Below, piece by piece: positions 3,023 through 63,282 of a DNA stretch of 64,000 nt. Made by a program: the position numbers and the translations under genes. Below the pieces are notes generated by a model. That model saw only the letters and a program-made list of their open reading frames with translations. It made no database searches and was not told the DNA's origin. The first letter of the stretch is position 1. Every line of letters starts with the position of its first letter. Source of the stretch: Fabrea salina (lineage: Eukaryota > Ciliophora > Heterotrichea > Heterotrichida > Fabreidae); NCBI GenBank assembly GCA_022984795.1, contig JALIHJ010000060.1:62001-126000 (forward strand). Direction: 5' to 3'.

Positions 3023-3778
3023 ATGGAATTTCCATTTGATGTTCGTAGAATACTGCGACCAGACTCGAGCGGCATTTCAGTGGTGTTTTCTAGAGAAGCA
3101 AGGGCCCCCTCGCGAGAACTAAGTATGATAATAGACAACATGGGGTCAGCCAGTGCCAGAGCTCAGAGACTCGGAAGCATCATCACGACTTCAGTTAGGT
3201 TTTTCAGTTTGAGCGACAACAAACTTTACTTCAAAGTTCAAGACAACAAAGTCTTGGGTTTCTTGAAAACAGGCACCAAAAACTTGTTTTATACAGACGA
3301 GCACGGCAGGATGAAAGAAATCACGCCTTTGTGCTTGCTGGACTTTTACGTCCATGAAGCTGTCCAAAGATCGGGGTTCGGCAAAGAACTCTATGAAGCT
3401 ATGCTTGCTTACGAAAGAACCTCGCCCAACAAAATAGCTATTGACAGGCCCTCTCCTAAACTGATTAGCTTTATGCGCAAGCACTACAACCTAAGTAGTT
3501 ACATTCCTCAAAACAACAACTATGTGATATATAGAGAGTACTTCGCGGTATGGAATATTTAGTAGCCACATTACGTAACTCCACAAGTGACCTATAAACC
3601 AGAAACTCAAAACCCAGAAACTTACAACCCAGAAACTTACAAACCAGAACCCATTAGAGAAGAGTCTGCTCAGCCAAGACCTAATAACTACCGGCCTTCT
3701 CCTCCCTGGGCAACAACTACTTACAACTATAAAACTACTTCTTCTGACTACGGGTCTTATTTGCAAAGAGGTTACTAA
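3023..3778 (+). CDS. ATAT1: Alpha-tubulin N-acetyltransferase (ATAT1/MEC-17 family)
   Basis: GNAT-fold enzyme that acetylates Lys40 of alpha-tubulin in the microtubule lumen, as in cilia. It begins MEFPFDV at ATG 3023. Family signatures are LDFYVHEAVQRSGFGKELY (acetyl-CoA loop), KIAIDRPSPKLISFMRKHYNL and a conserved end ...VIYREYFA. At 3548 the frame meets GTATGGAATATTTAG followed by TAG. The reading frame after the double TAG (3566-3778) stays in phase and looks coding: a Pro/Tyr-rich tail with PETYN/PETYK repeats. Its TAA interlocks with the stop of the convergent neighbour. I propose join(3023..3547,3566..3778), 245 aa, with an 18-nt intron. The alternative is a 180-aa protein ending VWNI at 3562. 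The enzyme call is firm; the tail is moderately supported. Confidence 0.85.
3548..3565 (+). other. Candidate atypical 18-nt intron in ATAT gene
   Basis: GTATGGAATATTTAGTAG. The first 15 nt match the local intron pattern (GTA start, A at position 10, AG at 14-15), but removing 15 nt leaves an immediate TAG. Removing 18 nt keeps phase and joins the enzyme domain to a coding-like tail. GTAT instead of GTAA and a length of 18 make it unusual here. Confidence 0.45.
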
Positions 3779-5025
3779 TTAAACCTTTGGCCTACTTTGG
3801 TAGCTACTGGCTTGTCGTACTTTTGGCGGTTAACATCTTCTTTCCACTCAAGTAAGTTTTTGGGCTTCGTAGAAAGGTTTAACTGGTAGGTGTTGGCTTC
3901 TTGAGAAGTAAGGACATTGTGCCTGTAGTCGCCAATACTGAGGACGCTTCTTTTAGGCTGTTCTTTGTCAAACAAAAAACTTCTTTTTTGGTCCTGTCTT
4001 AAAGTAGAGTAGCCTTGTTTAGTAGTAAATCCGTCTTCCTGGGGTTTTTCTGGGTTAGTTTGCATCCAAGCAGGGGCAAGGTCTGAAACGTTTCTTAGGT
4101 TATTCCCTTTTTTAGACTTGTCGAAAGGTCCATACCTGCCTAGTCTTTTTTGGCGGTTTCTAGAACGAGGACTTACAGTGATCCAGCCTGAAATGCGGCT
4201 GAGCAAAGTAATCGTGCCGTCATAACCTGGGGCTTTAGTTACATCGCTGTCTTTGACTAGACTAGTTTTCCTAACGTTGAACCATTCAGGGCCATCTGAA
4301 GAGGTATTTTGGGGGTCAGCTGTATCAGGTTTGTCGTAAGTGGTTTTTCGAGGGTTGAAGAGTTGACTTTGCTTCACTAGTGGAGTGTTTCTGGTTTTGA
4401 ACCAGTCAGGACTTTCTGGAGAAGCGTCGTGGCAGTCAAGAAACGGTTCATGTTTAGGAATAGAACCTAGACGCGGCAAGTTCTTAGATTCTTCTTGGAC
4501 TGAATCTCTGACCTTAAACCAGTCAGGTGCTTGTTTAGAAACGTTATGGACTTCGACGTAAGGCTTTTTGTGGATGCTTTGAACTCTTCTTTTTTGCAGA
4601 AAGGCTTCAGCAGTTTGCACTGGGTTTGCTTGCTTGTCTTGAAGAGGCTCGTTGGAGTCGATGCTCCTCCTGAGATAAGTGCCTTCTGAGGCTTGTCTGA
4701 GTAAGGGTTACTGAGCAACTTGTTTGGAGCGAGCTATTTTAGTAGTGCTGAGGGAGTTGATTGAGTTCAAGTAGTGCTGGTCCAAGACTGTGGACCTGTT
4801 GACGTACATGCCTGGTTTGTAGCCCGAAGTCCTTATAAAAGGCGCTGAAGGCTTAACGTTTACTTCGGATTCTGGGTGGGGGTTCCTTTCCATGATAGTA
4901 GCTGCGTTTCCTGGTTCAGCTATGTGGGTTTTGAACCTAGTAGGTTGGTGTTTGCTTACCTCTCCTGAAACAAAACTAGATAAAGTAGGTCCGTCCCTAA
5001 GACGGTGGGGAAGGTGTTGAGTCAT
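3775..5025 (-). CDS. Unknown protein with repeated PDWFxxR motifs
   Basis: Exons complement(join(3775..4696,4712..5025)), 411 aa, stop TAG. The 15-nt intron contains an in-frame TAA and splices QVAQ to QASEGTYL, so both parts form one protein. The protein is basic, polar and low in hydrophobics, with no membrane segment. A short motif recurs: APDWFKVRDS, SPDWFKTRNT, GPEWFNVRKT and a weaker APAWMQTN, spaced about 40-80 residues apart. Each is followed by a Lys/Ser-rich linker. Such short periodic motifs in a disordered protein suggest a repetitive binding partner, for instance a microtubule or axonemal lattice, but I do not recognise the family. Its stop interlocks with that of the ATAT gene. 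Confidence 0.75.
4697..4711 (-). other. 15-nt intron (PDWF-repeat gene)
   Basis: Minus-strand sequence GTAACCCTTACTCAG, with A at position 10. It carries an in-frame TAA if retained. Removal restores one continuous frame (phase 2). Confidence 0.92.
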
Positions 5026-5141
5026 TTTTGTTTAGATTATATAAGCCTTCACGGGTAATTAGTTTCTAGAAGCTAAGTATTTATGACTAATTTGTGTGAC
5101 TCTAAGCTGAAAATAGACAACGTTGATTATACAACTTAAAG
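5026..5141. promoter_or_regulatory. 116-nt divergent intergenic region
   Basis: AT-rich spacer between the ATGs of the PDWF-repeat gene (minus) and the TMEM131-like gene (plus). It holds a TATATAAG-like stretch near 5035-5044. It is the second-longest spacer between divergent starts in the window. No open frame of note is seen. Confidence 0.45.
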
Positions 5142-8100
5142 ATGATGGCTTTAGTATTGGTGTTTACTCTGGTATCGGGACAGATGTTCGAGATATCCGG
5201 AGTCAAAGAAAAACGAGGCAAAGAACATGCCAAATCTGCAATAGCCGGACTAGTAAGTGCTGAGGATAAGGTTGGGTCTTCCAATATCCTTTCAATGACT
5301 CCTTCGCAAATGGACTTTGGACCTGTGGCACTTTACACACTCAAAAAAACCAGTGTAGTAGTTAAGAACTCAGCCGAACACCCTGTGGACCTTTTAGGAG
5401 CTGACTCAGAAGACGCCCAATTCAAAGTCCTCAACTTCCAAAACAAGTCTCTTCTTCCAGGAACCCAAACAATCTTGCAAGTCTTGTTTGTACCCGAAAA
5501 ACTAGGAACTCAATCTACTTACTTGATCCTCAAAACAGATTATGGGGACCTCTTCTATAAGGCTGCAGGAACTGGCACAAAGAACCCTTACGAGGTACAA
5601 CCTATAGAGGTAGAAAGTGTTCTGGGGTCCCAAGAGCCCTCACAGCTGGAGCTCCACAACCCCTTTGATACTGAGATCCAAGTAGACCAGGTTTTTAGTT
5701 CTGACCCAAGTGTGTTCATTGAAATGACTCACGTAGTTGAGGAAACTGCTTGGAAAATTCTTCCCCAAGAAACCAAAAGTATTGTGAACGTCAACTTTAG
5801 GTACGATAAGGAAGGAACTTATTACTCCAAACTCCACGTTAAGTTATCCGGCAACCATCTAATCATACCTATCAAAGTGACACTTCTGAGACCTGGACTC
5901 CAACTGACCCCTGATTTTGTTTACTTTGGAATACTTTCGCAGCCCAACTTGCCTTACAAGGTACCTCTTTACGCCCGAAACACTGGGAAAGACCCTATCA
6001 AGATAAAAAACATAGTGCTTCCTAAGTCACTGGACTACCTTGAAATATACTCTAACACTAGTGTGGTGGTTCCTTCTGCGCAGCAAACCCAAATAGGTTC
6101 ACTAGTTTTTTACCCTATAGAAGAAGGCGACTTCCAAGGAACTTTGAAAGTACAGACTAACGACACCGACATCAACTTAGAGTACCGAGCTGTGGTTTAC
6201 TTTGACTTGATTGAGTACAACCACAACGACACCGTGTTCAAGTGCGGAGTTAACCAAGAAAAAGAAGTCAACATTATCAACAGGTTCAGCAGCGACATTT
6301 GGCTTGAAAGTTCAGAATCAGATGACGAGGGCATAGCTGTGGACTCCTTTCCCACCTGGATGAAGCCTGGCGAAAAAGTCCCTATAAAGCTCAAAGTGTT
6401 GACTTGGAAGAAAGGAGTGTCTCACGTTAAGCTGTTCACAAGTTTAGGTCCCTTGCCTTTAAAGATTTCTGTTGAGGACACAAGTTTCAGTATACTCAAA
6501 GTAGAGGAAGACTCAGAGACTTTTTCAAAAACCCTTGACTTTGGTCCTTTGGAGCTTCGGAAAACAAGGACTCAGAAGTTTGCTATTCTGAATCGAGGGA
6601 ACTCTCCTTTGGTTTTGAAGTCAGTTAACTTCCCACATAACACTTACGCTCATTTTCACTCTGTGAAAGCAAAGTCCCCAAGAACTCCTCTCTTAGAGAT
6701 CCAGCCTAACGAAAAAACCTACTTCGACATTTCTGTAATCCCTACAGAAGCATCTAGGTCACTCAATTTGAAAATAAACTTTGCAGACGAAGTTTACAAT
6801 ATCCCTATTACTTACGAAGTAGTTAAAGGGAGTGTGTTTGCTTACTCTGTAGAGTTTCCCAGAGCTTTTTCAGGCGTCACTCACGAAAAGCCCCTGGTGA
6901 TCTTTAACAACTACACAAGTGACTTAAACATCCAAAAAGTCACTACTGACCATAACTACATGACTGTGGAGCTGTACCATCAAATCATTCCTAAAGGCAA
7001 AAAAGTAGTTGCAGGGACTGTGAAGGTTCACGTTAACTTGCACAACATTCCTGAGTACCACCAAGACTTTTCCAAAGGACTCAGTTACGGTGAAATCCGC
7101 ATGTGGAACGAGAAAAAACGCGAGTGGAGTGAAGGCGAGTTAGGAGGAACAGTCAGGATATTCACTGACATTTCTGGGGAAATCGATGTAGGGGTCAAGG
7201 TCCACCTAAAAAAACCCTTACTTAGTTTATCCAAACTCAATTGGGGCAACCCAGAAACCAACTCTAAAGTAGAACGAACTGTCAAGATCGAAAACCCCAC
7301 TGAGCACCCTTTGCAAGTTCAGTTGTTCTTAGACGTTTCAAACCAAATAGAAACCCTTAAAAAAGAATGTGCTTACGGAACGAACTACCTAGACCACGAG
7401 GAGTTCGAAAACATGAGTCCAGGGAAAGAACGCCAATGCGGAGTTTTTTCTCAGGAAGAAATCAAAGGAATCATCAGCAAGCGCCCTCTACCGCATATTC
7501 CGATTCCACTGCACAAAGCTTCTGTGCTTGAAAAACTCAAGAACTCTTGGAACTTCCAAACAAAGAACTTCTTTATGAAGCCCAAAACTTTAGGTCCTGA
7601 GTGTGGGTGCAACGAAGACATAGCTTTTTACCTGAACAAAAACGAGTTTGTGATTCCTGGAATGTCTTCAGGAGAAGTAGGGCCTATTTACTTTCTGCCT
7701 ACTCAACAAACTTTTTACAACGCAACTTTGGTTCTGAGGAACAACCTTACTTACATAGAAACTATTCCTTTAAAGGTTCAAGCTTATTCGCCTAAGCTGT
7801 CTTTTGTTAGGCTTAAGTCTTATACTTCTAAGGGCTCTAGTTTACAACTCAAAGAAACCAGTTCGAAAAGGGAGATTTCCCAACTAAGCATTAAGATTTC
7901 CTTAGACGAGTTGCACAGATCTATCCATCAAATAATGTACTCAAACCCACACCCAGTTATCATTAGAGGTTTCGAAATAGAAAATCAAGGAGTTACTCCT
8001 GTCAGCATAAAAAGCTTCTTGCTCAACGGGTTTGCTTGTAACTACGCAGGAGTCTCTATTCCAGATTGCACAACTCCTATTTCAGTTAGCCCAGGCAAAA

Positions 8101-8825
8101 CCCAAGAAATACTTGTTTACTACTACCCTAACTTCGTAACGACTATGGAGCAGCTGGACTTGTGGATAGTTACTGAACACAACATCTTCAGTATGCCCTT
8201 AGAAGTTAGAATGCCTAAAGAAGTTTCTTCTTACTCAGGCATCAGTGCAAACATCTTAGGTATGAGCAAAACCGCCAAGTCTTCAGTTTGTTCTATTGCA
8301 ATAGTTATCTTTTTGTATATGATATTTTCTGTTTACAAGCACTCCAAAGTCAAAAGGATCCTAGTTACATCCATTACTTTGCTCAACCATCCTTTCAAGG
8401 TTAGGAAACGCAGTGCTTACAGCCCACCCATCATTCAAGCCAAAAAGCCAGTTAGTGTAGTAAAGCCTCCTCAGCCCTCTCCCCCGCCACCTGCTCCTGA
8501 GCCCGAACTCCCAGTTCCCGAAACTTCCAAACCTAAAAAGATCCGAGTCAAAAAAACCATGGACAACACCCTTATCCAAAAAGTAGACCAGCTAGCACAT
8601 TCCAAAGTTCCTAAGGTTCCAGAGGCTAGTTCCCACGTGATAGCAACCAACAAACTTTTACTTCAGAAAAAGAAAAAGACCCTTAAAACTGAGGAACCCA
8701 CTGCTAACACTCAAGAAAGCTACGTGACTAGCGAAGACGAACAAGACTTTCTGCTAGACGACTACAAGCAAAAAAACGAACTCTTTTCAAGGTGGAGTTT
8801 TGGACACTACGAGTCTATAGACTAA
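5142..8825 (+). CDS. TMEM131-like single-pass membrane protein
   Basis: 1227 aa, starting at the first of two tandem ATGs (5142). Residues 1-14 (MMALVLVFTLVSGQ) look like a signal peptide. Repeated Ig-like/ASH (PapD-like) beta modules follow, starting with a block of the type MDFGPVALYTLKK...VKNSAEHPVDL, then VPEKLGTQSTYLILKT. The module FKCGVNQEKEVNIINRFSSDIWL is also typical of the TMEM131 family. A single transmembrane helix lies at about 1050-1067 (AIVIFLYMIFSVY). The 160-residue tail is Lys- and Pro-rich, with a PPPPAPEPELP stretch. In animals TMEM131 sits in the ER/Golgi and helps secretory cargo such as procollagen. The ciliate cargo is unknown. Its TAA is separated by one base from the stop of the opposite gene. 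Confidence 0.8.
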   Translation: MMALVLVFTLVSGQMFEISGVKEKRGKEHAKSAIAGLVSAEDKVGSSNILSMTPSQMDFGPVALYTLKKTSVVVKNSAEHPVDLLGADSEDAQFKVLNFQNKSLLPGTQTILQVLFVPEKLGTQSTYLILKTDYGDLFYKAAGTGTKNPYEVQPIEVESVLGSQEPSQLELHNPFDTEIQVDQVFSSDPSVFIEMTHVVEETAWKILPQETKSIVNVNFRYDKEGTYYSKLHVKLSGNHLIIPIKVTLLRPGLQLTPDFVYFGILSQPNLPYKVPLYARNTGKDPIKIKNIVLPKSLDYLEIYSNTSVVVPSAQQTQIGSLVFYPIEEGDFQGTLKVQTNDTDINLEYRAVVYFDLIEYNHNDTVFKCGVNQEKEVNIINRFSSDIWLESSESDDEGIAVDSFPTWMKPGEKVPIKLKVLTWKKGVSHVKLFTSLGPLPLKISVEDTSFSILKVEEDSETFSKTLDFGPLELRKTRTQKFAILNRGNSPLVLKSVNFPHNTYAHFHSVKAKSPRTPLLEIQPNEKTYFDISVIPTEASRSLNLKINFADEVYNIPITYEVVKGSVFAYSVEFPRAFSGVTHEKPLVIFNNYTSDLNIQKVTTDHNYMTVELYHQIIPKGKKVVAGTVKVHVNLHNIPEYHQDFSKGLSYGEIRMWNEKKREWSEGELGGTVRIFTDISGEIDVGVKVHLKKPLLSLSKLNWGNPETNSKVERTVKIENPTEHPLQVQLFLDVSNQIETLKKECAYGTNYLDHEEFENMSPGKERQCGVFSQEEIKGIISKRPLPHIPIPLHKASVLEKLKNSWNFQTKNFFMKPKTLGPECGCNEDIAFYLNKNEFVIPGMSSGEVGPIYFLPTQQTFYNATLVLRNNLTYIETIPLKVQAYSPKLSFVRLKSYTSKGSSLQLKETSSKREISQLSIKISLDELHRSIHQIMYSNPHPVIIRGFEIENQGVTPVSIKSFLLNGFACNYAGVSIPDCTTPISVSPGKTQEILVYYYPNFVTTMEQLDLWIVTEHNIFSMPLEVRMPKEVSSYSGISANILGMSKTAKSSVCSIAIVIFLYMIFSVYKHSKVKRILVTSITLLNHPFKVRKRSAYSPPIIQAKKPVSVVKPPQPSPPPPAPEPELPVPETSKPKKIRVKKTMDNTLIQKVDQLAHSKVPKVPEASSHVIATNKLLLQKKKKTLKTEEPTANTQESYVTSEDEQDFLLDDYKQKNELFSRWSFGHYESID

Positions 8826-8826
8826 G

Positions 8827-11800
8827 TTAACTCTTAGTTACACTCAAAAAGTAGGAGTTGTGTACTCTGTTTATACACTTAACTTCTACTTGCTTGTTCA
8901 GTTCGTAGTTGAAAAAGGGGAACTTTGACTCCAGAAGTTCTTTAGTTTTGTCACTCACGTTGATTTTCCCAGGCTCGCCTCCACTTTCCATTTTGTTGGC
9001 AATTAACACGTCAGGTCCGTAGATGTCATATCTCACAATGTGAGTTCCAATTATTCCGGCTATTACTTTCCCTGTGTGGAGTCCTATTCGCATGTTAAGT
9101 TCGCTTCCGCATTCTTCGTTTACCTTTTGTATGATTTCAAGCATTCTTTGAGCCATTTTCACCATGTTGAAGCACTCCAAAGCTTCGTCTCGGTGCTGAC
9201 TTTCTACATAACTCATAACTACATAGCAGTCTCCAATAGTATGCACTTTGTAAACGTTTAAGTCCACACAAGACTTGTCAAACTCCCTGAACATATGAGA
9301 AAGCATCTCGACGACTTCTTTAGGGGACTTATCAGAACTCCAAGCAGTGAAGCCGACTATGTCAGCGTAAAGCAAAGTTACGTTTTTGAGTTTGTCAGTG
9401 ATGGCTTTTTCCTGCTTCATGTTTTCTAGAGCTCTTGGAGGTACCATTTGCTTAAGCAATTCATTAGTCTTTTGGATTTCTTTTTGGGCCATGTCTGCTA
9501 AGTTGAAGTAGATCCTCAGTCTCCTTTCACGCGAGTACACTGCGCAGATGTTGATTACACAGAACCCCACTACAAACAAAGAATTCGCTAAGTGCAAGTC
9601 AAAGTCGGAGTTGAAGAAAGTCAGCACCACCCAGGGCACAAATATCAAAAGCGCAGTCCAAGAAATGTGGGCCACTGACAAACCTGTAGTGTGGGCCAAA
9701 GTCAGTATGATATACATCACTTCTAAAGCCACCAAGTCGTTTTCTCGGTCTTCTTCAATTATTATGTACATAAGTGACACTACCAACATCAAAACCACTA
9801 CCAGAATCATAAGTGCAGCGTATAGTCTAAACTTAGAAGCTCTTTTCTGAATGAAAGCCAAAACCCCAATGAAACCCAGCACGATTCCTCTAAGTATAAC
9901 CACTTCTAAACTGTTTTCAGTGAGCACTAACTTAAGCAAGCTAATTAGAAACAGGACTCCATAAGCCACTGCTGCTATAATGAGTCCAATAAACATCATA
10001 GAGTGGTTTTTTTCTATCTTCTGAATGCGGAACTGTTTTTGTTTAGGAGTTTCTGTGCAGTTACAGTTGAGGATTTTGGCTTGTGGAAGTGTTTCTGTGT
10101 TTCTTCTTTTTTTGAAAATGTCACGTGTTTGTCTGATTTCAAGTTGTTCAAGCATAACGCTGTTTCTAGGCCTGGAAGGCGACTTTTCTCCTATTCTGGA
10201 ACTTTGAAAGAACGATGTGTCAAGTTTTAGGGTTTCAATTTCGTTGTAAGAAGACTCTGAAACTAAGTAGGTAGTAAGTGTGCCTTTACCTTTAGCTTCC
10301 ACGGTTTTTTGAGTGAATTCTAGTCCTTGAGTGTCTCCGATTAGTTGGTAAGTGGATTCTGAGATTTGGATGGTGTTGCATTTTTGGATAGTAGAGCACA
10401 TCCTTGAAGCCGTGTTAACAGTGTCTCCCACTAAAGAAAACTGGGGCTTGTGGTAGCCCACTACTCCTGCTGTAACTGGTCCACTGTTAATTCCTATTTT
10501 GACTTTTAGGTCTTTTCCGTTTTTAAGTTTGAAACTAGATATGGCGTTGATCATAGCCATTCCTAGTTCCACAGCACGTCTTGAGTGGCTTACTAGTTTA
10601 AGGTGGTCTTCAATCTCAGCTTCTGAGTCTTTGAGTCCAGCACAAGCCATGTAAGTCTTGCCTACTGTTTCGATCTTAGTTAGTCCGATTACTTCGCAGA
10701 GCTGGTCGAACTTTTGGAACAAGCTATCTAGAAAACAAGTTAGTTCTAAAGGAGTGTACTCTGCACAAATAGCGTCAAAGTCACAGATGTCGCAGAACAA
10801 AACAGTCACTACTCCTTGGTCTTCAGCAATGTAGCGCTTTCCGTCCTTAACTCTTTTTTTGACAAAAGAAGGCAGCAAGAAACTAAGTATCCCCTGGGCT
10901 TTTTGGATTTCGCTTTCTTTGATTTTGGCAAGTTTGTGTTCTTCTCTGCGTGAGTACTCCAGAGCGTAGCCTACTACTGTTGAAGTTGCTGATATTGCCA
11001 TGCCTATCACTGAGTAACTAAGCAGCATAAACACCAACTCAGCACCTTCGTATTGGCTATTTTCCAGAAAGAAAAAGACTTGGCACCAAGTAAGCAAAAT
11101 ACTTAAAACGTTAAGTCCTAGTATTTTGAGGAAGTCCACTCCAAACAGAATGTTGGTGATTGCTGGCACACACGCTGCTGCAAGTGTACCTACTCTTCCA
11201 AAAGCTATTTCCACTCCGAACTTAACCAACAGCGAAACTCCTATAATAGCTAAAGTGTACTTCACGTAGTGGTGTTTAAAGTGCTCTAAAAAGCTTAAAA
11301 ACAACACTACTGAAAAAGCTATGCACATAAGCACCCTCATTAAAGAGTAAGTCAAAGAAGCGTCAAACAAAACACTTTCCAGCATAGTCCACAAAACCAA
11401 AAGCACCCACAAAACTCCAATGATTATCCTGAAAAGGGTAATATGTTCCTCTATGTAAGTAGAGCGGTACTCCTTTTCTATATAAGGCGAAGTGAAGTGC
11501 AAAGAGTACTTTTGAATGCTAAAACCTTGCTTTTCCGAGTTAACATTCCAAGAGTTACTTTCTTTGTAACAACTAAATATGTTACTGCTGTACTGGTTCA
11601 GTCTTGAAAAGTTGCTGGTTTCTGATGAAACTTTGGAAACTGGCTTGAAAATAGTTGAATAAACTTTAAAAGAATAACTCAGCACAAAGCACAAGAAAGG
11701 AGACACAAGTGTTACAAGTACCACTTTAAGTGAACCGCCCATGTCCCTTCCTATTCCTAGTAAGTGGTCCGAAGTAAACACAAAGTAGTTCAGCAAAACT

Positions 11801-14922: not shown

Positions 14923-14943
14923 TTTTATGACTAAGTAATAATC
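14923..14943. promoter_or_regulatory. 21-nt divergent spacer
   Basis: Separates ATG 14922 (P4-ATPase/cyclase, minus) from ATG 14944 (KH protein, plus). It is AT-rich with TAATAAT just upstream of the plus-strand start. Confidence 0.5.
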
Positions 14944-16799: not shown

Positions 16800-17536
16800 A
16801 TGAAAACCGAAGTTCCCTATAAAGTCTTAGCAAAACCTACCTGAAACTTTTAAACTCAATAGTCCTAAAAAGCCTTTTGAAAAGCTTCACGTACTGGGAA
16901 ATCTACTCTAAAAACCAAAAACCAAGCAATTTAAGTATAATTGCTACTCCAAGAGCCCGTTCGCAGTCCAAAATCCCAGTTCCCAAGTCAGCAAGGAAGA
17001 GCTCTGAAGAAAAACCTAGAAGACAGTCACCCAGCCGCTCAACCACAAACACTCCTTACAAAAGACTCACCAGTGCTCCTCCCACAAGCTCACAAAGAAA
17101 CTCACCCAAGAACCTCTTCAGCAAACTCAAAACTGAACTCAAAGAAAAAGCCCAAGGCAAAAAAACCACCGACCCAGGCACGCGCCTCTATAACCAAGCC
17201 AAAACTCTTCAAGAAAAACGACAAAAGATGAAAATGCTTTACGAAAAGCACTACCCTTTCAGTCCAAGGATCCAAAACAACACTAACAAGTGGCTCAACC
17301 AAAGGTACCAGAGAAAAGCTTTTTCGGCCTACGACCAAGTAGCAGTGGTTTCTTCGTCTGCCGCTGTTTGTTCTTCAGCCACTGTTTTCAACTTCACCAA
17401 ACACACAGGGTCCAACATCAAAGATATGTTGTCTCCTAAACCCTTTGCAGACTTAAACTCAAAGCCAAGCAAGCCTAAACCTTTTATCCCACTGCTGCCC
17501 ACTGAGTGCTTTACAAAAGAAAACGGTGTAAATTAG
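16800..17536 (+). CDS. Basic protein of unknown function, 5' end broken by frame changes
   Basis: The main open frame (from 16823, without ATG until about 17228) gives a basic, Ser/Pro/Lys-rich protein. It has SRS/RS stretches, a helical segment (LYNQAKTLQEKRQKMKML) and the short motif YEKHYPFSPRI. The only good start is ATG 16800 in typical AT-rich context, reading MKTEVPYKVLAKPT and then TGA. A second frame, PETFKLNSPKKPFEKLHVLGNLL, then ends in TAA before the main frame takes over. No GTA-AG intron of 15 or 16 nt fits. Two single-base frame changes are needed, by programmed +1 frameshifts, sequence errors in A-runs, or real damage. The end is firm: TAG at 17534-17536 interlocks with the DnaJ stop. 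Confidence 0.55.
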
Positions 17537-48263: not shown

Positions 48264-48884
48264 TTAAACTGGCTGACCCACAGGAGCGTTGTAAATAGGC
48301 TGGCCTGGCATTGCAATTATTCCTGAGCGGGGAGCTAAGGTGTTGGCTTGTTGGTTCATGAGCTTGACTACTTCTTCTCCATGGAGGACTAAAATAGTTT
48401 CATTGTATTTGAGTCTTATGTCGGCACTCCAAACGATCTTGGCAAGATAAAAGTTGATCAGAAACAAAATAAATAAGACAATGAAAAGTCCGATCACTCC
48501 ATCAGTTCCCTCTAAAAACACCTCGAAAATGAAGTTCCAAGCAACATTAAACACTAACTCGAACTTTTTGATTTTGGCGTAAATTGAAAGTGGTAGGTAG
48601 GAGTTTTTAAGGATTCCGTTAACAGCAGGAATAGCCATTACTGCTACTGTTATTGAAACAATGTCTAGTAGCAATGCAAGAGCTGCCCAGGCGTCGAATT
48701 CTGCATGAAAGATTTCACTCAGAATGATGAAGAACTCAAAGAACCTAAGAACTCCTACTATAATGTCCAAAACACCTACTACAATCACCCCGTTCTTAAG
48801 AGTCATGCACCTTAAAAAGGACTTGTAAGGCCCCCCTAAGTACTTCATAAAACTTTCTTCTTCAGCTGGGCTCTGGACTTCCAT
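48264..48884 (-). CDS. Four-transmembrane protein of unknown function
   Basis: 206 aa. Hydrophobic helices lie near residues 30-57, 65-90, 105-125 and 130-152 (for instance GVIGLFIVLFILFLINFYL). A short cytosolic N terminus (MEVQSPAEEESF) precedes them. The hydrophilic tail ends in a Pro/Gly-rich stretch (IIAMPGQPIYNAPVGQPV). Similar small 4-TM proteins are abundant in ciliates. I do not recognise a named family. Confidence 0.78.
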   Translation of the reverse strand: MEVQSPAEEESFMKYLGGPYKSFLRCMTLKNGVIVVGVLDIIVGVLRFFEFFIILSEIFHAEFDAWAALALLLDIVSITVAVMAIPAVNGILKNSYLPLSIYAKIKKFELVFNVAWNFIFEVFLEGTDGVIGLFIVLFILFLINFYLAKIVWSADIRLKYNETILVLHGEEVVKLMNQQANTLAPRSGIIAMPGQPIYNAPVGQPV

Positions 48885-54333: not shown

Positions 54334-55797
54334 ATGGAGATATGTAGTATAGTTTTTTCTGAGCGTGAAAAGCAAAGCTACTCGGCGGAGTTCAGTAAAC
54401 TCACTTCTGACCAGCAGAAACCTCTTTCTGAAAGAGAACTTATAGGACAAGTGGCTTTGTGCTTCTTCAAAAGCCTTAAGTTAACCGATGAGGACTTCAG
54501 CAATGTTTGGAATCTAGTTTCTGAAAGAAGGAGCTACTTAAAGCTTCAAAACTTTATGTGTGCCATGCGACTTTGCAGTGCAAAGCGCCAAGGTAAAGAA
54601 ATCTCGCTTGAAAGCCTTAAAACAGAACAAAAAGTAATTGCTAAAAGGAAGAAAACAACTAGTGCAGAACCTAGTTTTCCTAAGAACTCAGTTACCTTAG
54701 TGTCTAAACAAACACTTAAAAGGATAACAGAAGAAGTTATTCAAGAAGAACCCTTAGTGTGTGTGCTAGAACCTACTTATGTAAGCTCAATGTGGAAAGG
54801 GTACTACTTGTATAGAATCCAAACAAAAGTTAACAGGAAAATATTTGCAGTGCAGAGAAGGTTCAGTGACCTAGACTGGTTCCACTCCCAACTTTCAAGA
54901 ATATTTAAAGGCCGCCCAATACCTCCACTTCCGCCTAAGAAAGTAACTGGTACAAGCAATTACGAGTTTTTAGAAAAAAGAAGACTTGAGATCGAGAACT
55001 ACTTGAACTTCCTTACCAAAGATACCGAAGTTCTAAACTCCACTGCTTTTAAAGTGTTTACTGAAACTCCTTTAGAAAAATTCAGTTCTGAAAAAAAGAA
55101 GGTTGAGCAAATCAACTACCAAGAAGAGCACAAAACTCTAAGGGACTCCTGCGAAGAACTACTTGCCACTGCCAAAAACAAAGCTGACTTGTTTCTATAC
55201 AAAAAGATTTACCCTTTTAGCAGTGAAATTAAGAACATAGAAACTTTTCTTAGCTACATTAAACAACCAACACTTAGCCTAACTAACTCACTTTATGAAC
55301 AAATTAGATGCGAGTTCGAAACTAACTCAGTGTTTTTGAACCTTAAAACGGAGTATGAAAGTTACTTCATCAACTACAGAGAAGCAATTGAAAACGCACA
55401 CTTAGAACAAACTAAAGCTATGCAAGAACTTAAACAGTACTACCTGAGAATAGCTAGCATTTGTAAGACCATAGCAACTTACAAAGCCTGTATGAGTGAA
55501 AGTTCCCGTCTAGAGTACCTTTTGTTCCTCAAAAACCAAAGAAAAAGCACCTTTGAAGACCAAGAGTCACTTGCTCAGTTAGACTTGCAAGTAAATGACT
55601 GCATCTCTAAAATTGACAAACTAAAAACGGACACTAAAGCCGCACAAAGCACCATACAAAAAGAACACACTGAACTAGAAGCTTACAGAAAAAGCAACTT
55701 GGTTCTAAACTTAAACTCAATAGTTCAAAGTCGTTTAAAGTCAAATGAAGCAGAGTGTCTTTATTGGAAAGAAGCTTTGCGGAATCTTAAGTTTTAA
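54334..55797 (+). CDS. PX-domain sorting nexin, SNX8/Mvp1-like
   Basis: 487 aa. An EH-like helical N-terminal region (about 20-95: LTDEDFSNVWNLVSERRSYL) precedes the PX domain (about 140-250). The PX domain has RRFSDLDWFHSQL, PPLPPKK and EFLEKRRLEIENYLNFL, the PtdIns3P-binding layout. The remaining about 230 residues are helical and can form a BAR-like dimer. EH-like plus PX plus BAR is the order seen in SNX8/Mvp1, which form tubules at endosomes. It starts 5 nt after copy 2 of the pseudokinase pair and ends one base from the LRR gene stop. Confidence 0.82.
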   Translation: MEICSIVFSEREKQSYSAEFSKLTSDQQKPLSERELIGQVALCFFKSLKLTDEDFSNVWNLVSERRSYLKLQNFMCAMRLCSAKRQGKEISLESLKTEQKVIAKRKKTTSAEPSFPKNSVTLVSKQTLKRITEEVIQEEPLVCVLEPTYVSSMWKGYYLYRIQTKVNRKIFAVQRRFSDLDWFHSQLSRIFKGRPIPPLPPKKVTGTSNYEFLEKRRLEIENYLNFLTKDTEVLNSTAFKVFTETPLEKFSSEKKKVEQINYQEEHKTLRDSCEELLATAKNKADLFLYKKIYPFSSEIKNIETFLSYIKQPTLSLTNSLYEQIRCEFETNSVFLNLKTEYESYFINYREAIENAHLEQTKAMQELKQYYLRIASICKTIATYKACMSESSRLEYLLFLKNQRKSTFEDQESLAQLDLQVNDCISKIDKLKTDTKAAQSTIQKEHTELEAYRKSNLVLNLNSIVQSRLKSNEAECLYWKEALRNLKF

Positions 55798-55798
55798 G

Positions 55799-57379
55799 TT
55801 AAACAGTTTGGATGCGGTTAAAGGGTTCCTCAAGAGACTCAGAGGCTCTTTGAAGTTCTTGTTTGAGTTTTTGGACTGGAAGTTTTTCCTTAGAAGCTTT
55901 GGAGTAGTACTTAGGGTTGACTTGGGAGCTGTACTTAGAACGCGAGGCAGTGAACTTAGTGTACCTGGGTCCTTCTTTTTTTTCTTGGAAAACCATTGGG
56001 TACTGGATGGCATGCTTGAGTTGTCTGTAGGCTTGCTGCAGCTCCAAAGCCGAGTCGTAGTCTTTGTTGTTTCCCAAAAACTGTCTGCAGAGTTCTCTGA
56101 ACTTATCCAGTTTAGAAGAAAACTGCTTGTTAGGGTTCTTTTTGCTTTCAGCTTCTGTAATGAAGAAGAGTTGGTTTTGTCCACTGCCTCTGGTTTGGAT
56201 GGCACTTTCCCTGTCGTTGCTAGGAGTGTAGATGTCTTTGTAGTCTCTGTTTTCTATTGCAGGAGGAAAGACTTCTTCGTCCATTTCAGAGTTAGAGTTC
56301 ATTTCGGATATAGGAATTGTTCCCATGTTCTTAGACAACTCCACTCCAAAGAGTTGGTTCTTAAGAGCAGCGTTGTAGTCTTGGGTCACGTAGGCAATAG
56401 GTCTTGCGTAAGGAGGTCTTTTGGCTTTGCGCATAGGGAACTCGTTGATAACTGTAGCTGATAAGTTAGTTAACAGTAGGTTTTCAAGTTCTTCGGTTTC
56501 TTGCTTTTTAGCAAAGGGGTTCCCAGTGATTGTTAGAACTTGCAGAGTTTGGAAGTCAGCAGCTGGGTAAAGGTTTTCTTCTGAATCAACCCAGTTGTAC
56601 GAGAAGTCAAGTTCTTTCAAGTGAATAAAAGAGTCGGCATTCAGTGCTTCTGAGTGAATTCCTCTGAGTTTGTTGCGAGCCAAGTCGAGTTTTTGCAAAC
56701 TAGGAATACTTGCTAGGGCTCTGAACAACAATGAAGCTGAAAACAAAACACTGTCACTGGAGAACCCGTTTGACCCCAGCTTAAGTTCTTGCAAAGCTTT
56801 GAAGTAACTTAGGTCTTCAGGAAGAGTGCAAAGGTCGTTGTTGGAAAGATCTAAAATACTGAGTCTAGGCAAAGAACCTAAGTTAAGGATAGTTTGTGCT
56901 GAGACGCAGTTAAAACTAAGGTTAAGGGTTTCGAGGCACCTGAAGCTAGGAAAAGACAGTTCAGGGATTTGGGTTATTTTATTGCACATAAGCGTTAGGT
57001 CAGTTAAGCTTTCTAAGTTTCTAATAAGTCCTAAGTCAATACAGTTATCTGACAAGTCGAGTTTGGAAAGTGAAGTGAAGTACTTAAGATCTTCTTCAAC
57101 TACATCAGAAATCCCTGCTCCACGCAGTTGAACTGTCACTACTTCGTTAGGCATCTCAAGTTTACTTGCTTCTAAAAGTAGAAAGCCGTCAAGTATTTTG
57201 TTGTAGATAGTGGGCTTGAAAGACTTAGGAGTTTCTTTGTAAAAAGCGTTGAAGGGGTCTTTCCTTAAGTGGCGGGGTTTTTTAGGTTTTCTTTGCTTGA
57301 TTTCAGTGTCGATGTTTTGGACTTTGATAGGAAAGGCTTGTCTTTCTTGGTTTTTGCGGAAACTGGCTCTAAAGGACAT
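55799..57379 (-). CDS. Leucine-rich repeat protein, possibly XRRA1-like
   Basis: 526 aa. LRRs of the type LSKLDLSDNCIDL and LSILDLSNNDLCTLPEDL span about 80-260. A spacer then leads to a long hydrophilic tail with Ser/Lys/Gln-rich segments. The basic head (about 1-45) reads RKNQERQAFPIKVQNIDTE. LRR order and the tail resemble XRRA1/LRRC-type proteins of flagellated eukaryotes, but that is only a loose similarity. LRRs give protein binding; nothing else is clear. Its ATG is 12 nt from the divergent lipin ATG. Confidence 0.75.
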   Translation of the reverse strand: MSFRASFRKNQERQAFPIKVQNIDTEIKQRKPKKPRHLRKDPFNAFYKETPKSFKPTIYNKILDGFLLLEASKLEMPNEVVTVQLRGAGISDVVEEDLKYFTSLSKLDLSDNCIDLGLIRNLESLTDLTLMCNKITQIPELSFPSFRCLETLNLSFNCVSAQTILNLGSLPRLSILDLSNNDLCTLPEDLSYFKALQELKLGSNGFSSDSVLFSASLLFRALASIPSLQKLDLARNKLRGIHSEALNADSFIHLKELDFSYNWVDSEENLYPAADFQTLQVLTITGNPFAKKQETEELENLLLTNLSATVINEFPMRKAKRPPYARPIAYVTQDYNAALKNQLFGVELSKNMGTIPISEMNSNSEMDEEVFPPAIENRDYKDIYTPSNDRESAIQTRGSGQNQLFFITEAESKKNPNKQFSSKLDKFRELCRQFLGNNKDYDSALELQQAYRQLKHAIQYPMVFQEKKEGPRYTKFTASRSKYSSQVNPKYYSKASKEKLPVQKLKQELQRASESLEEPFNRIQTV

Positions 57380-57391: not shown

Positions 57392-59101
57392 ATGAATACA
57401 TTAGGAAGACTAGTATCAGGAATTACAAATGCTTTTGACTTTAACTCAGCTACTCTTTCAGGGGCTTTGGACGTGATAGTAATCAAGCACCCTGACGGTT
57501 CTTTGCACTGTACTCCTTTTCACGTGAGGTTTGGGAAGCTTAAGCTTTTGCGCAGTCGCGAAAAAACAATCCGTCTCTTAGTTAACGGAGAGTCCACAGA
57601 AATCAGAATGAAACTTGGAAACGCAGGGGAAGCCTTTTTTGTAGAGGAAACTGAACAGAAAGTAGAGACTGAACTAAGCACTTCCCCAATTCTTTCTCCT
57701 GACAGCAGTTCTCCCCCAATAGCTCCTATTAGCATAGGAGAAGAAGAAGAGAAACAAGTAGAAATGCTGCTTCCTCAGAGTCCTAACTCTGTTATGAAGG
57801 AACTCGACTTGCCTAAGCAAAGTGCTTGGCAGTGGCTTTGGGGCAAACCTCCTCAAAAGAAGGAAACCACTAAACCTCCTGAAAAACCTAAGTCCTTGTT
57901 TGGGTCTATCTTTGGAATGTTTGGCTCCAAACAAGAAGACAGTGAACTCGAAATGAGTTTGTGTGGAGGCCTTATTGCAGGCTGTGAAGACTTAGAAACT
58001 TTGTTTGCTGAAAACAAAGTGAGCTTTGAAGTCTTTTCTGAAGACCCTTGGAAAATCATAGGCAATCCTAACTTGATGTTTAAAATTGAAGGGAAGTTGT
58101 ACAACGTTGAGTCAGGAATTCCGCTTATTTTGTCAATTTTAGCTTTCAACCAAGAAGTAGGCACTGAAAACAAAGAACCTAAGGAAGAAGATAAGATGGA
58201 GCAACTAGAGTTGCCTCCTCTAGAACAAAGCTCTGAAACCATAGTTACTGAAGAAAGTGTAGACGAGTTCCCTGAAGTGCATCCTTCTGAGGACACTAAG
58301 TCTTCTGACTCAGAAAAAAGAACTAAATACTTCAAAAAAACACTTAGACTTAACTCAGAGGAACTAGTTAAACTCAAATTAAAACCAGGAGTGAACAGTG
58401 TAGTTTACACAGTAAACAGCAGTTTCCAAGGACAACAGTCCATTGAAGGCAAGATTTATCTGTGGGATTCAGACAGCAAAATAGTGATTTCTGACATAGA
58501 CGGAACCATTACTAAGTCAGACATTTTAGGACACATCCTACCAATGGTAGGCAAGGACTGGAGTCACCCTGGAGTAGTTAACCTCTACAACAGCATTATA
58601 CGCAACGGGTACAAAATCATATACCTGTCCTCACGAGCTATAGGACAAGTCCGCACCACAAAAGAGTACTTAGGTTCTGTGTCCCAAAACAACAAAGGAC
58701 TACCTGACGGCCCTGTTTTAATGTCTCCAGACAGGCTCATTGAGTCCTTCGTGAGAGAAGTAATTAAAAGGGTCCCCCAAAAGTTCAAAGCCGGGGTTTT
58801 GAGAGACGTTGCAGGACTCTTTCCCAACGAACGAAACCCTTTTTACGCAGGCTTTGGCAACAGAGACAGTGACGCCATTGCTTATCGGGCTGCTGGTGTG
58901 CCTCTGCACAAAATCTTTATTATTAACCCTAGTGGTGCAGTTTTTGTGTTTAACAATACTTTTTGCAAAACATACACTGAGATCAACACTCTTGTTTCGG
59001 AGATCTTTCCAAACATAATTGGTTTAATTTCAGACGAGGAATACAGCAACATAAACTTCTGGAGAGTGCCTTTTCCACAGATACTAGAAGAACTTGACTA
59101 A
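57392..59101 (+). CDS. LPIN: Lipin, Mg-dependent phosphatidate phosphatase
   Basis: 569 aa from ATG 57392; an in-frame upstream stretch lacks ATG and overlaps the LRR gene. The N-LIP domain is MNTLGRLVSGITNAFDFNSA, then LSGALDVIVIKHPDG. The C-LIP HAD domain has the catalytic DIDGTITKSD near residue 370 and the later GFGNRDSDAIAYRAAGVP loop. Both catalytic Asps of DxDxT are present. Lipin converts phosphatidate to diacylglycerol for glycerolipid synthesis and controls ER/nuclear membrane growth. The linker is acidic and Pro-rich, shorter than in animals. The TAA is one base from the next convergent stop. Confidence 0.93.
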   Translation: MNTLGRLVSGITNAFDFNSATLSGALDVIVIKHPDGSLHCTPFHVRFGKLKLLRSREKTIRLLVNGESTEIRMKLGNAGEAFFVEETEQKVETELSTSPILSPDSSSPPIAPISIGEEEEKQVEMLLPQSPNSVMKELDLPKQSAWQWLWGKPPQKKETTKPPEKPKSLFGSIFGMFGSKQEDSELEMSLCGGLIAGCEDLETLFAENKVSFEVFSEDPWKIIGNPNLMFKIEGKLYNVESGIPLILSILAFNQEVGTENKEPKEEDKMEQLELPPLEQSSETIVTEESVDEFPEVHPSEDTKSSDSEKRTKYFKKTLRLNSEELVKLKLKPGVNSVVYTVNSSFQGQQSIEGKIYLWDSDSKIVISDIDGTITKSDILGHILPMVGKDWSHPGVVNLYNSIIRNGYKIIYLSSRAIGQVRTTKEYLGSVSQNNKGLPDGPVLMSPDRLIESFVREVIKRVPQKFKAGVLRDVAGLFPNERNPFYAGFGNRDSDAIAYRAAGVPLHKIFIINPSGAVFVFNNTFCKTYTEINTLVSEIFPNIIGLISDEEYSNINFWRVPFPQILEELD

Positions 59102-59102
59102 G

Positions 59103-59633
59103 TTAAGAATTAACAGGCCTTGCATTTTTAGTAGTGCTCATATCTCTCATGCTTTCTGAGTGGTATTTGAACATCCAGTTTCCTTCAGTTCCTAGTGCTT
59201 TTTCGATTTGTTTGAATATTGCAAAGTTGTGCTGTGACACCCACACTTGCAAAAGGACTTCTTTGGACTTGGCAGACACCATTACTCCTTGCACGTCTTC
59301 TCCCAGACCCCCCCTTGCACACTCAACTAACAAGTCTTCCCAAACTTGGTTGGTTTCAGAGCAGCGTTTGAGTCTTTGCAAAAAGCAACCCCCATCTGGA
59401 AAATACTCCCACATAGGTTTGATTTGGTCCTTGAAAAAGGCAAGGTTCCAGTTAGGCTTCATTTCAGTAGGCTTCCTCAGATAAGAGTAAGCGCTTGCGA
59501 ATTCTTGAATTGTAGTTACAGTAGCTAGGGGAACTAGTTCTAGTTGGTACTTTCGAGTGACTTCTTGTTTAGAGGTGTTTTTGGGAAGACAAGAGTACCA
59601 AAACACCCAAGGAAAAAATAGCTCGTTCTCCAT
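59103..59633 (-). CDS. eIF4E-family cap-binding protein (4EHP-like)
   Basis: 176 aa from ATG 59633; the frame extends upstream only from non-ATG codons. The motifs WVFWYSCLP, MKPNWNLAFFKDQIKPMWEY and NQVWEDLLVE are the eIF4E fold, with the cap-stacking Trp in PMWEY. At the other stacking position the sequence reads KYQLELVPL, so Tyr or a neighbour replaces Trp56, as in class II eIF4E/4EHP. The GG-x-W motif before the second strand is GGCFL. It may bind cap weakly and repress rather than activate translation; that is an inference. It lies 7 nt downstream of citrate synthase. Confidence 0.82.
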   Translation of the reverse strand: MENELFFPWVFWYSCLPKNTSKQEVTRKYQLELVPLATVTTIQEFASAYSYLRKPTEMKPNWNLAFFKDQIKPMWEYFPDGGCFLQRLKRCSETNQVWEDLLVECARGGLGEDVQGVMVSAKSKEVLLQVWVSQHNFAIFKQIEKALGTEGNWMFKYHSESMRDMSTTKNARPVNS

Positions 59634-61841: not shown

Positions 61842-62705
61842 ATGTCTGAAGCACAAAGCGGAGAACTAATGGGGGAACCCTATTCTATGCTAGAAGAAGA
61901 AGAGTTCAAAGAAACTGAAGCCTTGCTTCCTAGGATAGCCCAAAACATGGAAGGTTCAGAGGTGATGTCCAACATCACTAGTTTGTATGCCAACTCTATT
62001 TACATTTTGGTTCCAGCAGTAATCTTGAGCTCTGCTAAGGTAAACACCAAGTAGATCATTGCTTCCTCTATTGTACTTGGAATTTCTTCAGGGGACACTG
62101 AAGAACCCATTGAAACCTTTGTAATTGGAATGCTGGTGATAGACAGTGTATTTCTATTCATCTGCATTTTTAGGTGTGTAGGAAGATCTTACCAGAGTTC
62201 AAAAATGTTTTCAGTTGCCAATTACTTAGACTCTGTTTTGATACTGTAAGTGCTAAGCAGGGCTTACATTACCTTCCAAGTTTTAGGCAATGTATGGTAC
62301 TACAAATGCGATAACTGTTTAGACAACGCTCCTGAACTCAGCATCTTAACCTTGATTTACATAATACTGGGGTACTTGTTTTTGAGTTTGCCGTGTTGCT
62401 TGTTTACCATGATATGCTTGTGCCTTCCGTTCTTGATCACTGTGTTTTTGTGGATAGTAAGAGGAGCTAACAAAGAAGGCCAAATAAGAACACTGCCTCC
62501 TGAAGTCTACAGTTCTGCACAACATACACAGTCCAGAAACTGCACTATTTGCCACGTGCCTTTTGTAGACGGAGTAAGGATAATACCTTTCCCTTGCAAC
62601 TCAAGACACGTTTTCCACGAAGAGTGTGCTAAAAGCTGGATTAACTGCGGGTACGAGTTCTGTCCTACTTGCAAGCAAAACTTAACTCAAAGTGATACAG
62701 AATAA
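61842..62705 (+). CDS. Membrane RING-finger protein, copy 2
   Basis: Exons join(61842..62039,62055..62245,62261..62705), 277 aa. Splices give SSAK|IIASSIVLG and DSVLIL|LAYITFQVLGNVWYYKCDN. It has the same plan as copy 1: acidic head, four membrane segments, GNVWYYKCDNC loop, and RING with CTICHVPFVDG, CNSRHVFHEECAKSW and CPTC. The unusual C-x3-H spacing is shared. The first intron is at the homologous site in both copies; the second is absent from copy 1. Likely an E3 ligase; substrate unknown. Confidence 0.85.
62040..62054 (+). other. 15-nt intron 1 (RING copy 2)
   Basis: GTAAACACCAAGTAG, A at position 10, phase 0, homologous to the intron of copy 1. Confidence 0.93.
62246..62260 (+). other. 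15-nt intron 2 (RING copy 2)
   Basis: GTAAGTGCTAAGCAG, A at position 10, phase 2. Reading through it meets an in-frame stop, and removal joins LIL to AYITF through a split Leu codon. Confidence 0.92.
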
Positions 62706-62709
62706 TGGA

Positions 62710-63282
62710 TTAATTACGCTTAACTTTTTTAGTAGCAGTTTGGGGCTCAGAAGCTTTTCTTTTGATAGCTTTGCTTCTAGTTACTACTCCTTCAGACTTA
62801 TTTTCAAGTTCTTTCCTCATCCTAGTGTACCACTCAGGCACAGGACGTTTTTTCCAAGTAGCAAACCTGTGCTTGGCCCCCACGTAGTAATTCCTGTAAC
62901 TCAACACAGGGTCTTCGCACTTGTACTCTTCAGGCATGGCTAAGGCAAACTTGGTTAAGCCTAGGTCAGGAATGTTGGGTTCTTGCAAACTTGCAACAAC
63001 GTCCCAGCTTTTGTGGTTTTCATCTCTGTTGTACCTGTACTTGAACTCTTCGTTAAGTGCTTCTGTAAGGTCCCGCAGCCACCTCCAGTTAGAAAGTGAC
63101 TCTTTGGCCCACAGTGTACAGGGGTGTTTTTTGTGCGCAGGTTTGTAAGGTGCTTCAACTCCTGTAAGCCATAGCACAGTGCAGAGCATCTGAGCTGACT
63201 CCAGAATCATTTTGACTATATGCTTGTCGCAGTGGTAAAGTGCACACTTTTTAACCTTTAAACTTAAAGCGAAAATGTTCAT
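62710..63282 (-). CDS. Protein of a phage/large-DNA-virus family, with nuclear tail
   Basis: 190 aa. The start MNIFALSLKVKKCALYHCDKH and VKMILESAQMLCT resemble a family common in phages and large DNA viruses, some of which carry a pyrimidine-dimer glycosylase label; I cannot confirm that activity. Other conserved blocks are HPCTLWAKESLSNWRWLRDL and PVLSYRNYYVGAKHRFATWKKR. The C terminus (KAIKRKASEPQTATKKVKR) looks like a bipartite nuclear import signal, absent from viral versions as far as I know. Codon use looks like its neighbours. The frame is intact, so it appears domesticated. A nuclear DNA-related role is an inference. Confidence 0.65.
   Translation of the reverse strand: MNIFALSLKVKKCALYHCDKHIVKMILESAQMLCTVLWLTGVEAPYKPAHKKHPCTLWAKESLSNWRWLRDLTEALNEEFKYRYNRDENHKSWDVVASLQEPNIPDLGLTKFALAMPEEYKCEDPVLSYRNYYVGAKHRFATWKKRPVPEWYTRMRKELENKSEGVVTRSKAIKRKASEPQTATKKVKRN

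What the first reader, a model, noticed from the sequence alone, without database searches (positions are those of the whole stretch)
3775..62710. All ten convergent gene pairs end within -4 to +4 nt, many with interlocked stop codons
Pairs (plus end/minus end): 3778/3775, 17536/17533, 39952/39949 and 45507/45504 overlap by 4 nt (CTAA, TTAG, TTAG, TTAA each hold a stop on both strands). 19255/19256 and 48263/48264 abut. 8825/8827, 55797/55799 and 59101/59103 share TAAGTTA with a 1-nt spacer. 62705/62710 has 4 nt. There is no room for 3' UTRs outside the opposite coding region. So polyadenylation or termination must lie inside the neighbour's 3' end, or transcripts are trimmed at the stop.
Basis: seen in the sequence. 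Interest (0 to 1): 0.78.

Follow-up and report, generated by a model that had tools for sequence, protein, structure and literature searches.

The report
Ciliate genes with interlocked stop codons
In this very compact ciliate chromosome, genes that face each other tail to tail usually end within a few bases of each other, often sharing the letters of their stop signals, so each gene's end signal probably lies at or inside the last few codons of its neighbour.

Summary
All ten junctions carry the stated stops at the stated coordinates, and a codon-bias gene finder, at its 15-bit cut-off, returns the same ten convergent pairs. Nine need no extra assumption; 3778/3775 depends on an unproven 18-nt intron. 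The window lies in a 158-kb, telomere-capped contig of an 18.3-Mb heterotrich ciliate genome, very probably Fabrea salina.

The distribution is tight (median +1 nt, quartiles -4 and +19; 12 of 55 at -4). But ten of ten within +/-4 is a lucky stretch: outside the window it is 14 of 45.

Offsets -1, -2, -3 and -5 are impossible, and 55 of 90 tandem gene ends already carry an antisense stop at -4, so interlocking needs no special machinery.

Best mechanism: an AU/UAA-rich 3'-end signal on both sides of the stop, visible as a synonymous codon shift in the last codons, with published heterotrich 3' UTRs of about 22 nt. Two such signals can be superimposed. No transcript ends were available.

The parts
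3775..3778 (.). Convergent junction 1, CTAA, overlap 4 nt (plus stop TAA, minus stop TAG)
   Evidence: plus side conditional on an 18-nt intron; a possible 16-nt intron near the minus end
8823..8829 (.). Junction 2, TAAGTTA, 1-nt spacer
   Evidence: minus partner domain runs to residue 2046 of 2051
17533..17536 (.). Junction 3, TTAG, overlap 4 nt
   Evidence: minus partner DnaJ_C to residue 317 of 334
19253..19258 (.). Junction 4, TAGTTA, abutting
   Evidence: plus partner CSN7/PCI match
39949..39952 (.). Junction 5, TTAG, overlap 4 nt
   Evidence: ABC transporter and kinase matches
45504..45507 (.). Junction 6, TTAA, overlap 4 nt
   Evidence: both C-termini supported by relatives
48261..48266 (.). 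Junction 7, TAATTA, abutting
   Evidence: ACOX C-terminus supported by orthologues
55795..55801 (.). Junction 8, TAAGTTA, 1-nt spacer
59099..59105 (.). Junction 9, TAAGTTA, 1-nt spacer
   Evidence: LNS2 to residue 581 of 610
62703..62712 (.). Junction 10, TAATGGATTA, 4-nt spacer
3023..3778 (+). Alpha-tubulin acetyltransferase (Mec-17) gene, first ATG 3023; ends at 3778 only if 3548-3565 is an intron, otherwise at 3562
3775..5025 (-). Unknown protein, two exons joined by a 15-nt intron at 4697-4711
5142..8825 (+). TMEM131-like protein, 1227 aa
8827..14922 (-). P4-type ATPase fused to two guanylate cyclase domains; ORF from GTG 14982, first ATG 14922
16877..17536 (+). Unknown basic protein, ORF from TTG; true start not settled
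17533..18537 (-). DnaJ chaperone
18551..19255 (+). COP9 signalosome subunit 7-like (CSN7/PCI)
19256..19564 (-). 102-aa protein, no Pfam match
36224..39952 (+). ABC transporter, 1242 aa
39949..41655 (-). Protein kinase, 568 aa
44806..45507 (+). Histidine phosphatase family protein
45504..46106 (-). TAF8-like TFIID subunit; near-identical MMETSP transcript ORF
46188..48263 (+). Acyl-CoA oxidase
48264..48884 (-). 206-aa protein, no Pfam match (membrane-like by eye)
54334..55797 (+). EH/PX domain protein
55799..57379 (-). Leucine-rich repeat protein
57392..59101 (+). Lipin phosphatase; ORF from GTG 57269, likely ATG start 57392
59103..59633 (-). Unknown protein; ORF from TTG 59651, likely ATG start 59633
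62250..62705 (+). Last called segment of a gene whose upstream segments (61842-62249) are joined by probable 15-nt introns; RING-like by eye, not scanned
62710..63282 (-). Protein with a pyrimidine-dimer DNA glycosylase (Pyr_excise) match

Best explanation
These are ordinary nuclear genes of a heterotrich ciliate whose macronuclear chromosomes have lost almost all spacer DNA. Each mRNA probably ends about 0-25 nt after its stop, directed by a degenerate AU/UAA-rich signal that straddles the stop codon: about 15-21 nt inside the coding end and about 18-24 nt after it. Because that signal lies on both sides of the stop, two convergent genes can lay their signals on top of each other and shrink to the smallest arrangement the genetic code allows (stops touching, or interlocked by 4 nt) without changing either protein. 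Tandem and divergent neighbours shrink less because a start-side signal must also fit. Each convergent mRNA then ends inside, or right at, the last codons of its neighbour. Shown here: the spacing distribution, the code limits, the AU/UAA-rich island and the synonymous codon shift. Inferred: that the island is the 3'-end signal, why the other spacers are longer, and the actual mRNA ends.
For: Spacing: 55 pairs, median +1, quartiles -4/+19, mode -4 (12 of 55), against medians +26 tandem and +35 divergent. Code limits: -1, -2, -3, -5 impossible; -4 possible as TTAA, CTAA, TTAG, CTAG. T or C before the stop gives 55 of 90 tandem ends an antisense stop at -4. Island: GC 0.33 in the last 5 codons against 0.42 just upstream, 0.27-0.28 in the first 18 nt after the stop, then 0.37-0.41 by +25..+60, in tandem and convergent ends alike. 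It acts at nucleotide level: the T share in two-fold pyrimidine codons is 0.25 in gene interiors but 52 of 102 (tandem) and 66 of 110 (convergent) in the last five codons; against codons -12 to -19 of the same genes, p = 6e-4 and 1e-8. Off-frame TAA in the last 22 nt: 77 against 20.8 expected (tandem), 84 against 18.9 (convergent); TTA rises less (34 against 17.4, 32 against 15.8; asymmetry p = 0.002 and 8e-5). Precedent: heterotrich 3' UTR median 21-23 nt, some absent, weakly U-flanked stops (PMC4967479). Lineage: 15-nt introns, CCCTAACA-type telomeres, Stentor and Blepharisma the organism names shown among listed relatives.
Against: No transcript 3' ends were available, so the signal role is inferred. 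Start-side codons also show some T relaxation (0.35-0.41), so part of the codon shift may be a general gene-end effect. The last seven codons of convergent genes are no more AT-rich than those of tandem genes (p = 0.77), so no separate imprint of the neighbour's signal was detected. At +4..+20, TAA exceeds TTA in tandem ends (105 against 64) but not in convergent ends (69 against 92): there the neighbour's own strand dominates, as superposition predicts but also as plain neighbour coding would. In tandem ends the downstream AT-richness is mixed with the next gene's start signals. The island is not fully symmetrical: the downstream side is more AT-rich. Nine of 55 pairs are 92 nt or more apart; two of them look like gene-calling misses, the rest are unresolved.
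Confidence: 0.72

Rival explanations
1. Trimming at the stop: the 3' end is made at, or within a few nt of, the UAA itself (UTR-less mRNAs), so convergent mRNAs do not overlap, or hardly.
For: Some Condylostoma mRNAs, especially with UAA stops, have poly(A) directly after the stop (PMC4967479). 16 of the 20 window stops are TAA.
Against: The same paper gives a median of 21-23 nt for heterotrichs. The AU-rich zone continues about 18-24 nt past the stop here, and 4 of 20 window stops are TAG.
Confidence: 0.2
2. Pure run-in: a gene that loses its stop is extended into its neighbour until the first antisense stop, which happens to sit at -4; spacing is a by-product with no pressure on 3' ends.
For: A simulated antisense frame entering 90 tandem gene ends meets its first stop at -4 in 12-17% of cases when it enters from +5 to +16 (8% from +30).
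Against: The same simulation puts 39-51% of stops deeper than -12 (30% from +30), whereas 2 of 41 observed pairs with spacing up to +16 lie there, and 12 of 41 lie at -4. Deep coding overlap is avoided, which a pure run-in does not explain.
Confidence: 0.05
3. Excision scars: spacer DNA is present in the germline and removed during macronuclear development at TA/TAA/TTA-type boundaries, which leaves stop-like TTAA or TAATTA at the join.
For: About three quarters of Blepharisma germline segments are bounded by TA-containing repeats, and one size class by TAA/TTA (PMC9942856, passages). TTAATTAA occurs near 7 of 82 convergent against 1 of 90 tandem ends, and TAAGTTA near 12 of 82 against 3 of 90.
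Against: TA-containing joins are forced by stop codons anyway, and two convergent stops predict the palindromes. Most Blepharisma segments are intragenic. No germline sequence was available.
Confidence: 0.04

Closest known systems
Heterotrich ciliate 3' ends (Condylostoma magnum and others; Swart et al. 2016, PMC4967479)
   Same: Same lineage; [quoted passage not shown]
   Different: That work is about transcripts and context-dependent stops. The passages I saw give no convergent stop-to-stop distances; this genome appears to use standard stops.
Fabrea salina macronuclear genome (Zhang et al. 2022, MBE msac062)
   Same: Very probably the same organism: title 'extremely streamlined' seen in reference lists; size about 18.35 Mb is recalled. 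Standard code reported in PMC10553269 (passage).
   Different: The paper itself is not held; whether it reports convergent distances is unknown to me.
Giardia muris compact genome (PMC7641422)
   Different: Parasite of another supergroup; a -4 mode for convergent stops was not in the passages I saw. The Giardia signal motif was not tested here.
Overlapping transcription in microsporidia (Williams 2005, cited in PMC3629993)
   Same: Transcripts that start or end inside neighbouring genes in compacted eukaryotic genomes (passages).
   Different: Obligate intracellular parasites; this organism is free-living if it is Fabrea.

Membership tests
Heterotrich macronuclear genome | 15-16-nt introns | tested here: met
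   15 nt is the commonest length (9 of 19 candidates of 14-21 nt, some overlapping), GTA...TAG/CAG; further 15-nt cases read
Heterotrich macronuclear genome | Closest named relatives are heterotrichs | tested here: met
Heterotrich macronuclear genome | CCCTAACA-type telomeres on macronuclear chromosomes | tested here: met
   Both ends of the 157,913-base contig; that this repeat is typical of heterotrichs is recalled
Heterotrich macronuclear genome | 3' UTR median 21-23 nt | not testable with these tools
   No transcript ends available
Fabrea salina | Genome size and sequence identity to the published assembly | tested here: inconclusive
   18,328,466 bases in 103 contigs; published size only recalled; an MMETSP transcript ORF is listed as 100% identical to the TAF8-like protein, with one difference seen by eye. 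The output does not name the MMETSP library
Giardia-like stop-overlapping polyadenylation signal | A signal that includes or overlaps the stop codon | tested here: inconclusive
   UAA/AU-rich island and synonymous shift around stops, but no mapped 3' ends
Canonical AAUAAA-directed polyadenylation | AATAAA near the gene end | tested here: not met
   Within 25 nt of 3 of 82 convergent ends; 19 of 90 tandem ends, where the next gene's start signals confound

The most novel reading that the evidence does not exclude
The U-flanked UAA stop is a two-strand device: UUAA/UAAUUA is at once the stop codon and the core of the 3'-end signal for both convergent genes. Codon choice in the last five to seven codons is set by RNA 3'-end formation rather than by the protein, and at the tightest junctions some 40-48 nt of the two mRNAs are mutually antisense (assuming 22-nt UTRs; 46 of 55 pairs are closer than two such UTRs).
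Probability: 0.3. Interest if true: 0.62.

Novelty: new member of a known kind. Interest (0 to 1): 0.42.

Why it matters
It shows how far a eukaryotic gene can be packed when its 3'-end signal is short and lies on both sides of the stop. The minimum spacing is then set by the genetic code itself, and the spacer left depends on which signals must coexist (tail-tail about 1, tail-head about 26, head-head about 35 nt). This gives a simple, quantitative test for 3'-end signals hidden in coding sequence, and raises the question of how such cells tolerate sense-antisense mRNA ends.

Tried and rejected
Rejected: bacterial or viral origin (eukaryotic domains, heterotrich relatives, telomeres, 15-nt introns). 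Rejected: hidden last exons making false stops at the window junctions; a scan for 15-16-nt introns starting in the 90 nt up to each of the 20 stops found one candidate, on the minus side of 3775. Rejected: backup stop codons as the cause; in-frame second stops directly after the stop are enriched in tandem (20 of 96) but not in convergent ends (8 of 88). Rejected: AAUAAA. Led nowhere: Rfam on the window (0 matches), tRNA scan (0), papers on convergent stop spacing in ciliates (nothing on it in the listings). The Fabrea and Stentor genome papers are not held. Rows dropped before counts: exons scoring under 15 bits; pairs with a gene running off a fetched stretch, or with no ATG for tandem and divergent spacers; 23 of 229 gene ends directly followed by an in-frame segment; for and the tail part of 74, ends scoring under 20 bits and convergent ends with spacing outside -12..+45; for the start part, starts scoring under 20 bits or with an ATG far from the coding core.
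Full report
What the sequence is. The window is bases 62001-126000 of a 157,913-base contig in an assembly of 18,328,466 bases and 103 contigs. That contig begins and ends in CCCTAACA-type telomere repeats, so it looks like a complete macronuclear chromosome. Proteins are eukaryotic (TFIID TAF8, lipin, alpha-tubulin acetyltransferase, a P4-ATPase fused to guanylate cyclase domains). The commonest introns are 15 nt. The organism is therefore a heterotrich ciliate. Fabrea salina is very likely: an MMETSP transcript ORF is near-identical to the TAF8-like protein, and I recall a published size near 18.35 Mb, but that paper is not held, so the name is an inference.

Checking the observation. I trained a codon-bias model on 90 long ORFs and called coding segments on both strands. 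With a 15-bit cut-off it found ten convergent pairs in the window, the same ten. With 12 bits two further weak pairs appeared (36217/36202 and 61169/61115); the first lies over the start of a long ABC transporter ORF and the second in a stretch where the finder missed a RING-finger ORF (61185-61808), so I discount both. Domain ends and orthologue lengths support several stops; the others rest on open frame and coding bias. The weakest is 3778: the acetyltransferase ORF stops at 3562 (followed by another TAG), and only removal of an 18-nt intron at 3548-3565 carries it to 3778; removal of 15 nt leaves an immediate stop.

Is it more than chance? I used the rest of that contig except 500 bases, 100 kb of contig 1 and 10 kb from each of four other contigs, about 297 kb in all including the window, or 1.6% of the genome. 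In 55 convergent pairs the distance has quartiles -4, +1 and +19. Exactly -4 occurs 12 times, 0 five times, +1 four times. Within -4..+4 lie 10 of 10 window pairs and 14 of 45 others (7 of 19 on the same contig, 5 of 20 on contig 1, 2 of 6 elsewhere; Fisher p = 7e-5). Of nine pairs with spacing at or above 90 or below -12 in the first two contigs, two look like missed small genes or exons; the other seven are unresolved. Tandem spacers (stop to first ATG) have median 26 (n = 92) and divergent ones (ATG to ATG) 35 (n = 54).

Why -4. Enumerating stop codons on both strands shows that overlaps of 1, 2, 3 and 5 nt are impossible, while 4 nt is possible as TTAA, CTAA, TTAG or CTAG. The base before the stop is T in 40 of 90 tandem ends, against 24% T at third codon positions (p = 2e-5), and T or C in 58 of 90. 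As a result 55 of 90 tandem ends, which have no convergent partner, already carry an antisense stop at -4. Interlocking is therefore nearly free. If a neighbour simply ran in until its first stop, 39-51% of stops would fall deeper than -12 when it enters from +5 to +16 (30% from +30); only 2 of 41 close pairs do. So spacers have been squeezed out while deep coding overlap is avoided.

Mechanism. Around stops there is an AT-rich island. GC is 0.33 in the last five codons against 0.42 in codons -19 to -6 (p = 2e-6 tandem, 7e-9 convergent), and 0.27-0.28 in the first 18 nt after the stop. It is partly synonymous: among two-fold pyrimidine-ending codons, the T share is 0.25 in gene interiors, but 52 of 102 (tandem) and 66 of 110 (convergent) in the last five codons, against 44 of 150 and 36 of 149 at codons -12 to -19 of the same genes; the rise remains without the very last codon (p = 0.005 and 9e-6). 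Start-side codons show a weaker rise (0.35-0.41) and almost no GC drop (0.41 against 0.42). Off-frame TAA is about fourfold enriched in the last 22 nt of coding sequence, TTA about twofold, so the signal has a strand. After the stop, TAA exceeds TTA in tandem ends (105 against 64) but not in convergent ends (69 against 92), where the neighbour's own strand dominates. AATAAA is rare at convergent ends (3 of 82). I read this as a degenerate UAA-rich 3'-end signal straddling the stop.

Published data fit: heterotrich 3' UTRs have a median of 21-23 nt, and some Condylostoma mRNAs, especially with UAA stops, have none (PMC4967479, section 11). Because the island lies on both sides of the stop, two can be superimposed, which would explain why convergent pairs shrink furthest. 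Tandem and convergent tails are equally AT-rich (p = 0.77): each gene's own signal suffices and no extra imprint of the neighbour is visible. That is consistent with superposition but also means the neighbour's use of the region is not shown.

Consequences. If both UTRs are about 22 nt, 46 of 55 pairs (10 of 10 in the window) would have overlapping mRNA ends (assumption stated). If ends are made at the UAA, there is almost no overlap. Sequence alone cannot decide.

Known or new. Compaction of this kind is known from heterotrichs, Giardia muris (polyadenylation signal overlapping the stop, median spacer 37 bp; PMC7641422, passages) and microsporidia (PMC3629993, passages). My searches of the held library showed no account of convergent stop spacing in ciliates (listings only), but the key genome paper could not be read. 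I therefore call it a new member of a known kind, with a quantitative description and a testable 3'-end hypothesis.

Noticed in passing
44799-44806, 18537-18551, 1805-1814: Divergent genes with 6, 13 and 8 nt between their ATG codons; the first spacer is the palindrome TTATAA. Five of 54 divergent pairs have exactly 6 nt, so start-side signals must also lie at or inside coding sequence.
   Followed up: partly
window and fetched loci, upstream of called starts: The 10 nt before ATG are A/T-rich, with A at -1 and at -2 in about two thirds of 167 called starts; TAATAA is the commonest hexamer in the 30 nt upstream.
   Followed up: partly
8827-14982 (-): A fusion of a phospholipid-transporting ATPase with two guanylate cyclase domains; such fusions are recalled from other alveolates.
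   Followed up: no
21736-35022 (-): A 4428-aa uninterrupted ORF with an AAA domain and an RZ-type zinc finger; RNF213-like by recall.
   Followed up: no
62710-63282 (-): Match to pyrimidine dimer DNA glycosylase (Pyr_excise, E 1e-5), a family recalled mainly from phages and bacteria; possible transfer.
   Followed up: no
19572-21695 (-): Hybrid histidine kinase with response-regulator domain.
   Followed up: no
49031-51610 and 51614-54328 (+): Adjacent similar kinase-leucine-rich-repeat genes separated by 3 nt, probably a tandem duplication.
   Followed up: no
L015, about 8110-8254 (contig 1, 38110-38254); also L014 near 251 (contig 1, 20251): A motif close to TAACTAAACTTAGCATTAATTA appears twice in one long convergent spacer, and part of it at another convergent junction.
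   Followed up: no
the two larger contig samples: Strong preference for C over T in two-fold codons (AAC, GAC, TAC, CAC) despite about 42% GC, with CpG at 0.44 of expectation on the window's contig.
   Followed up: partly
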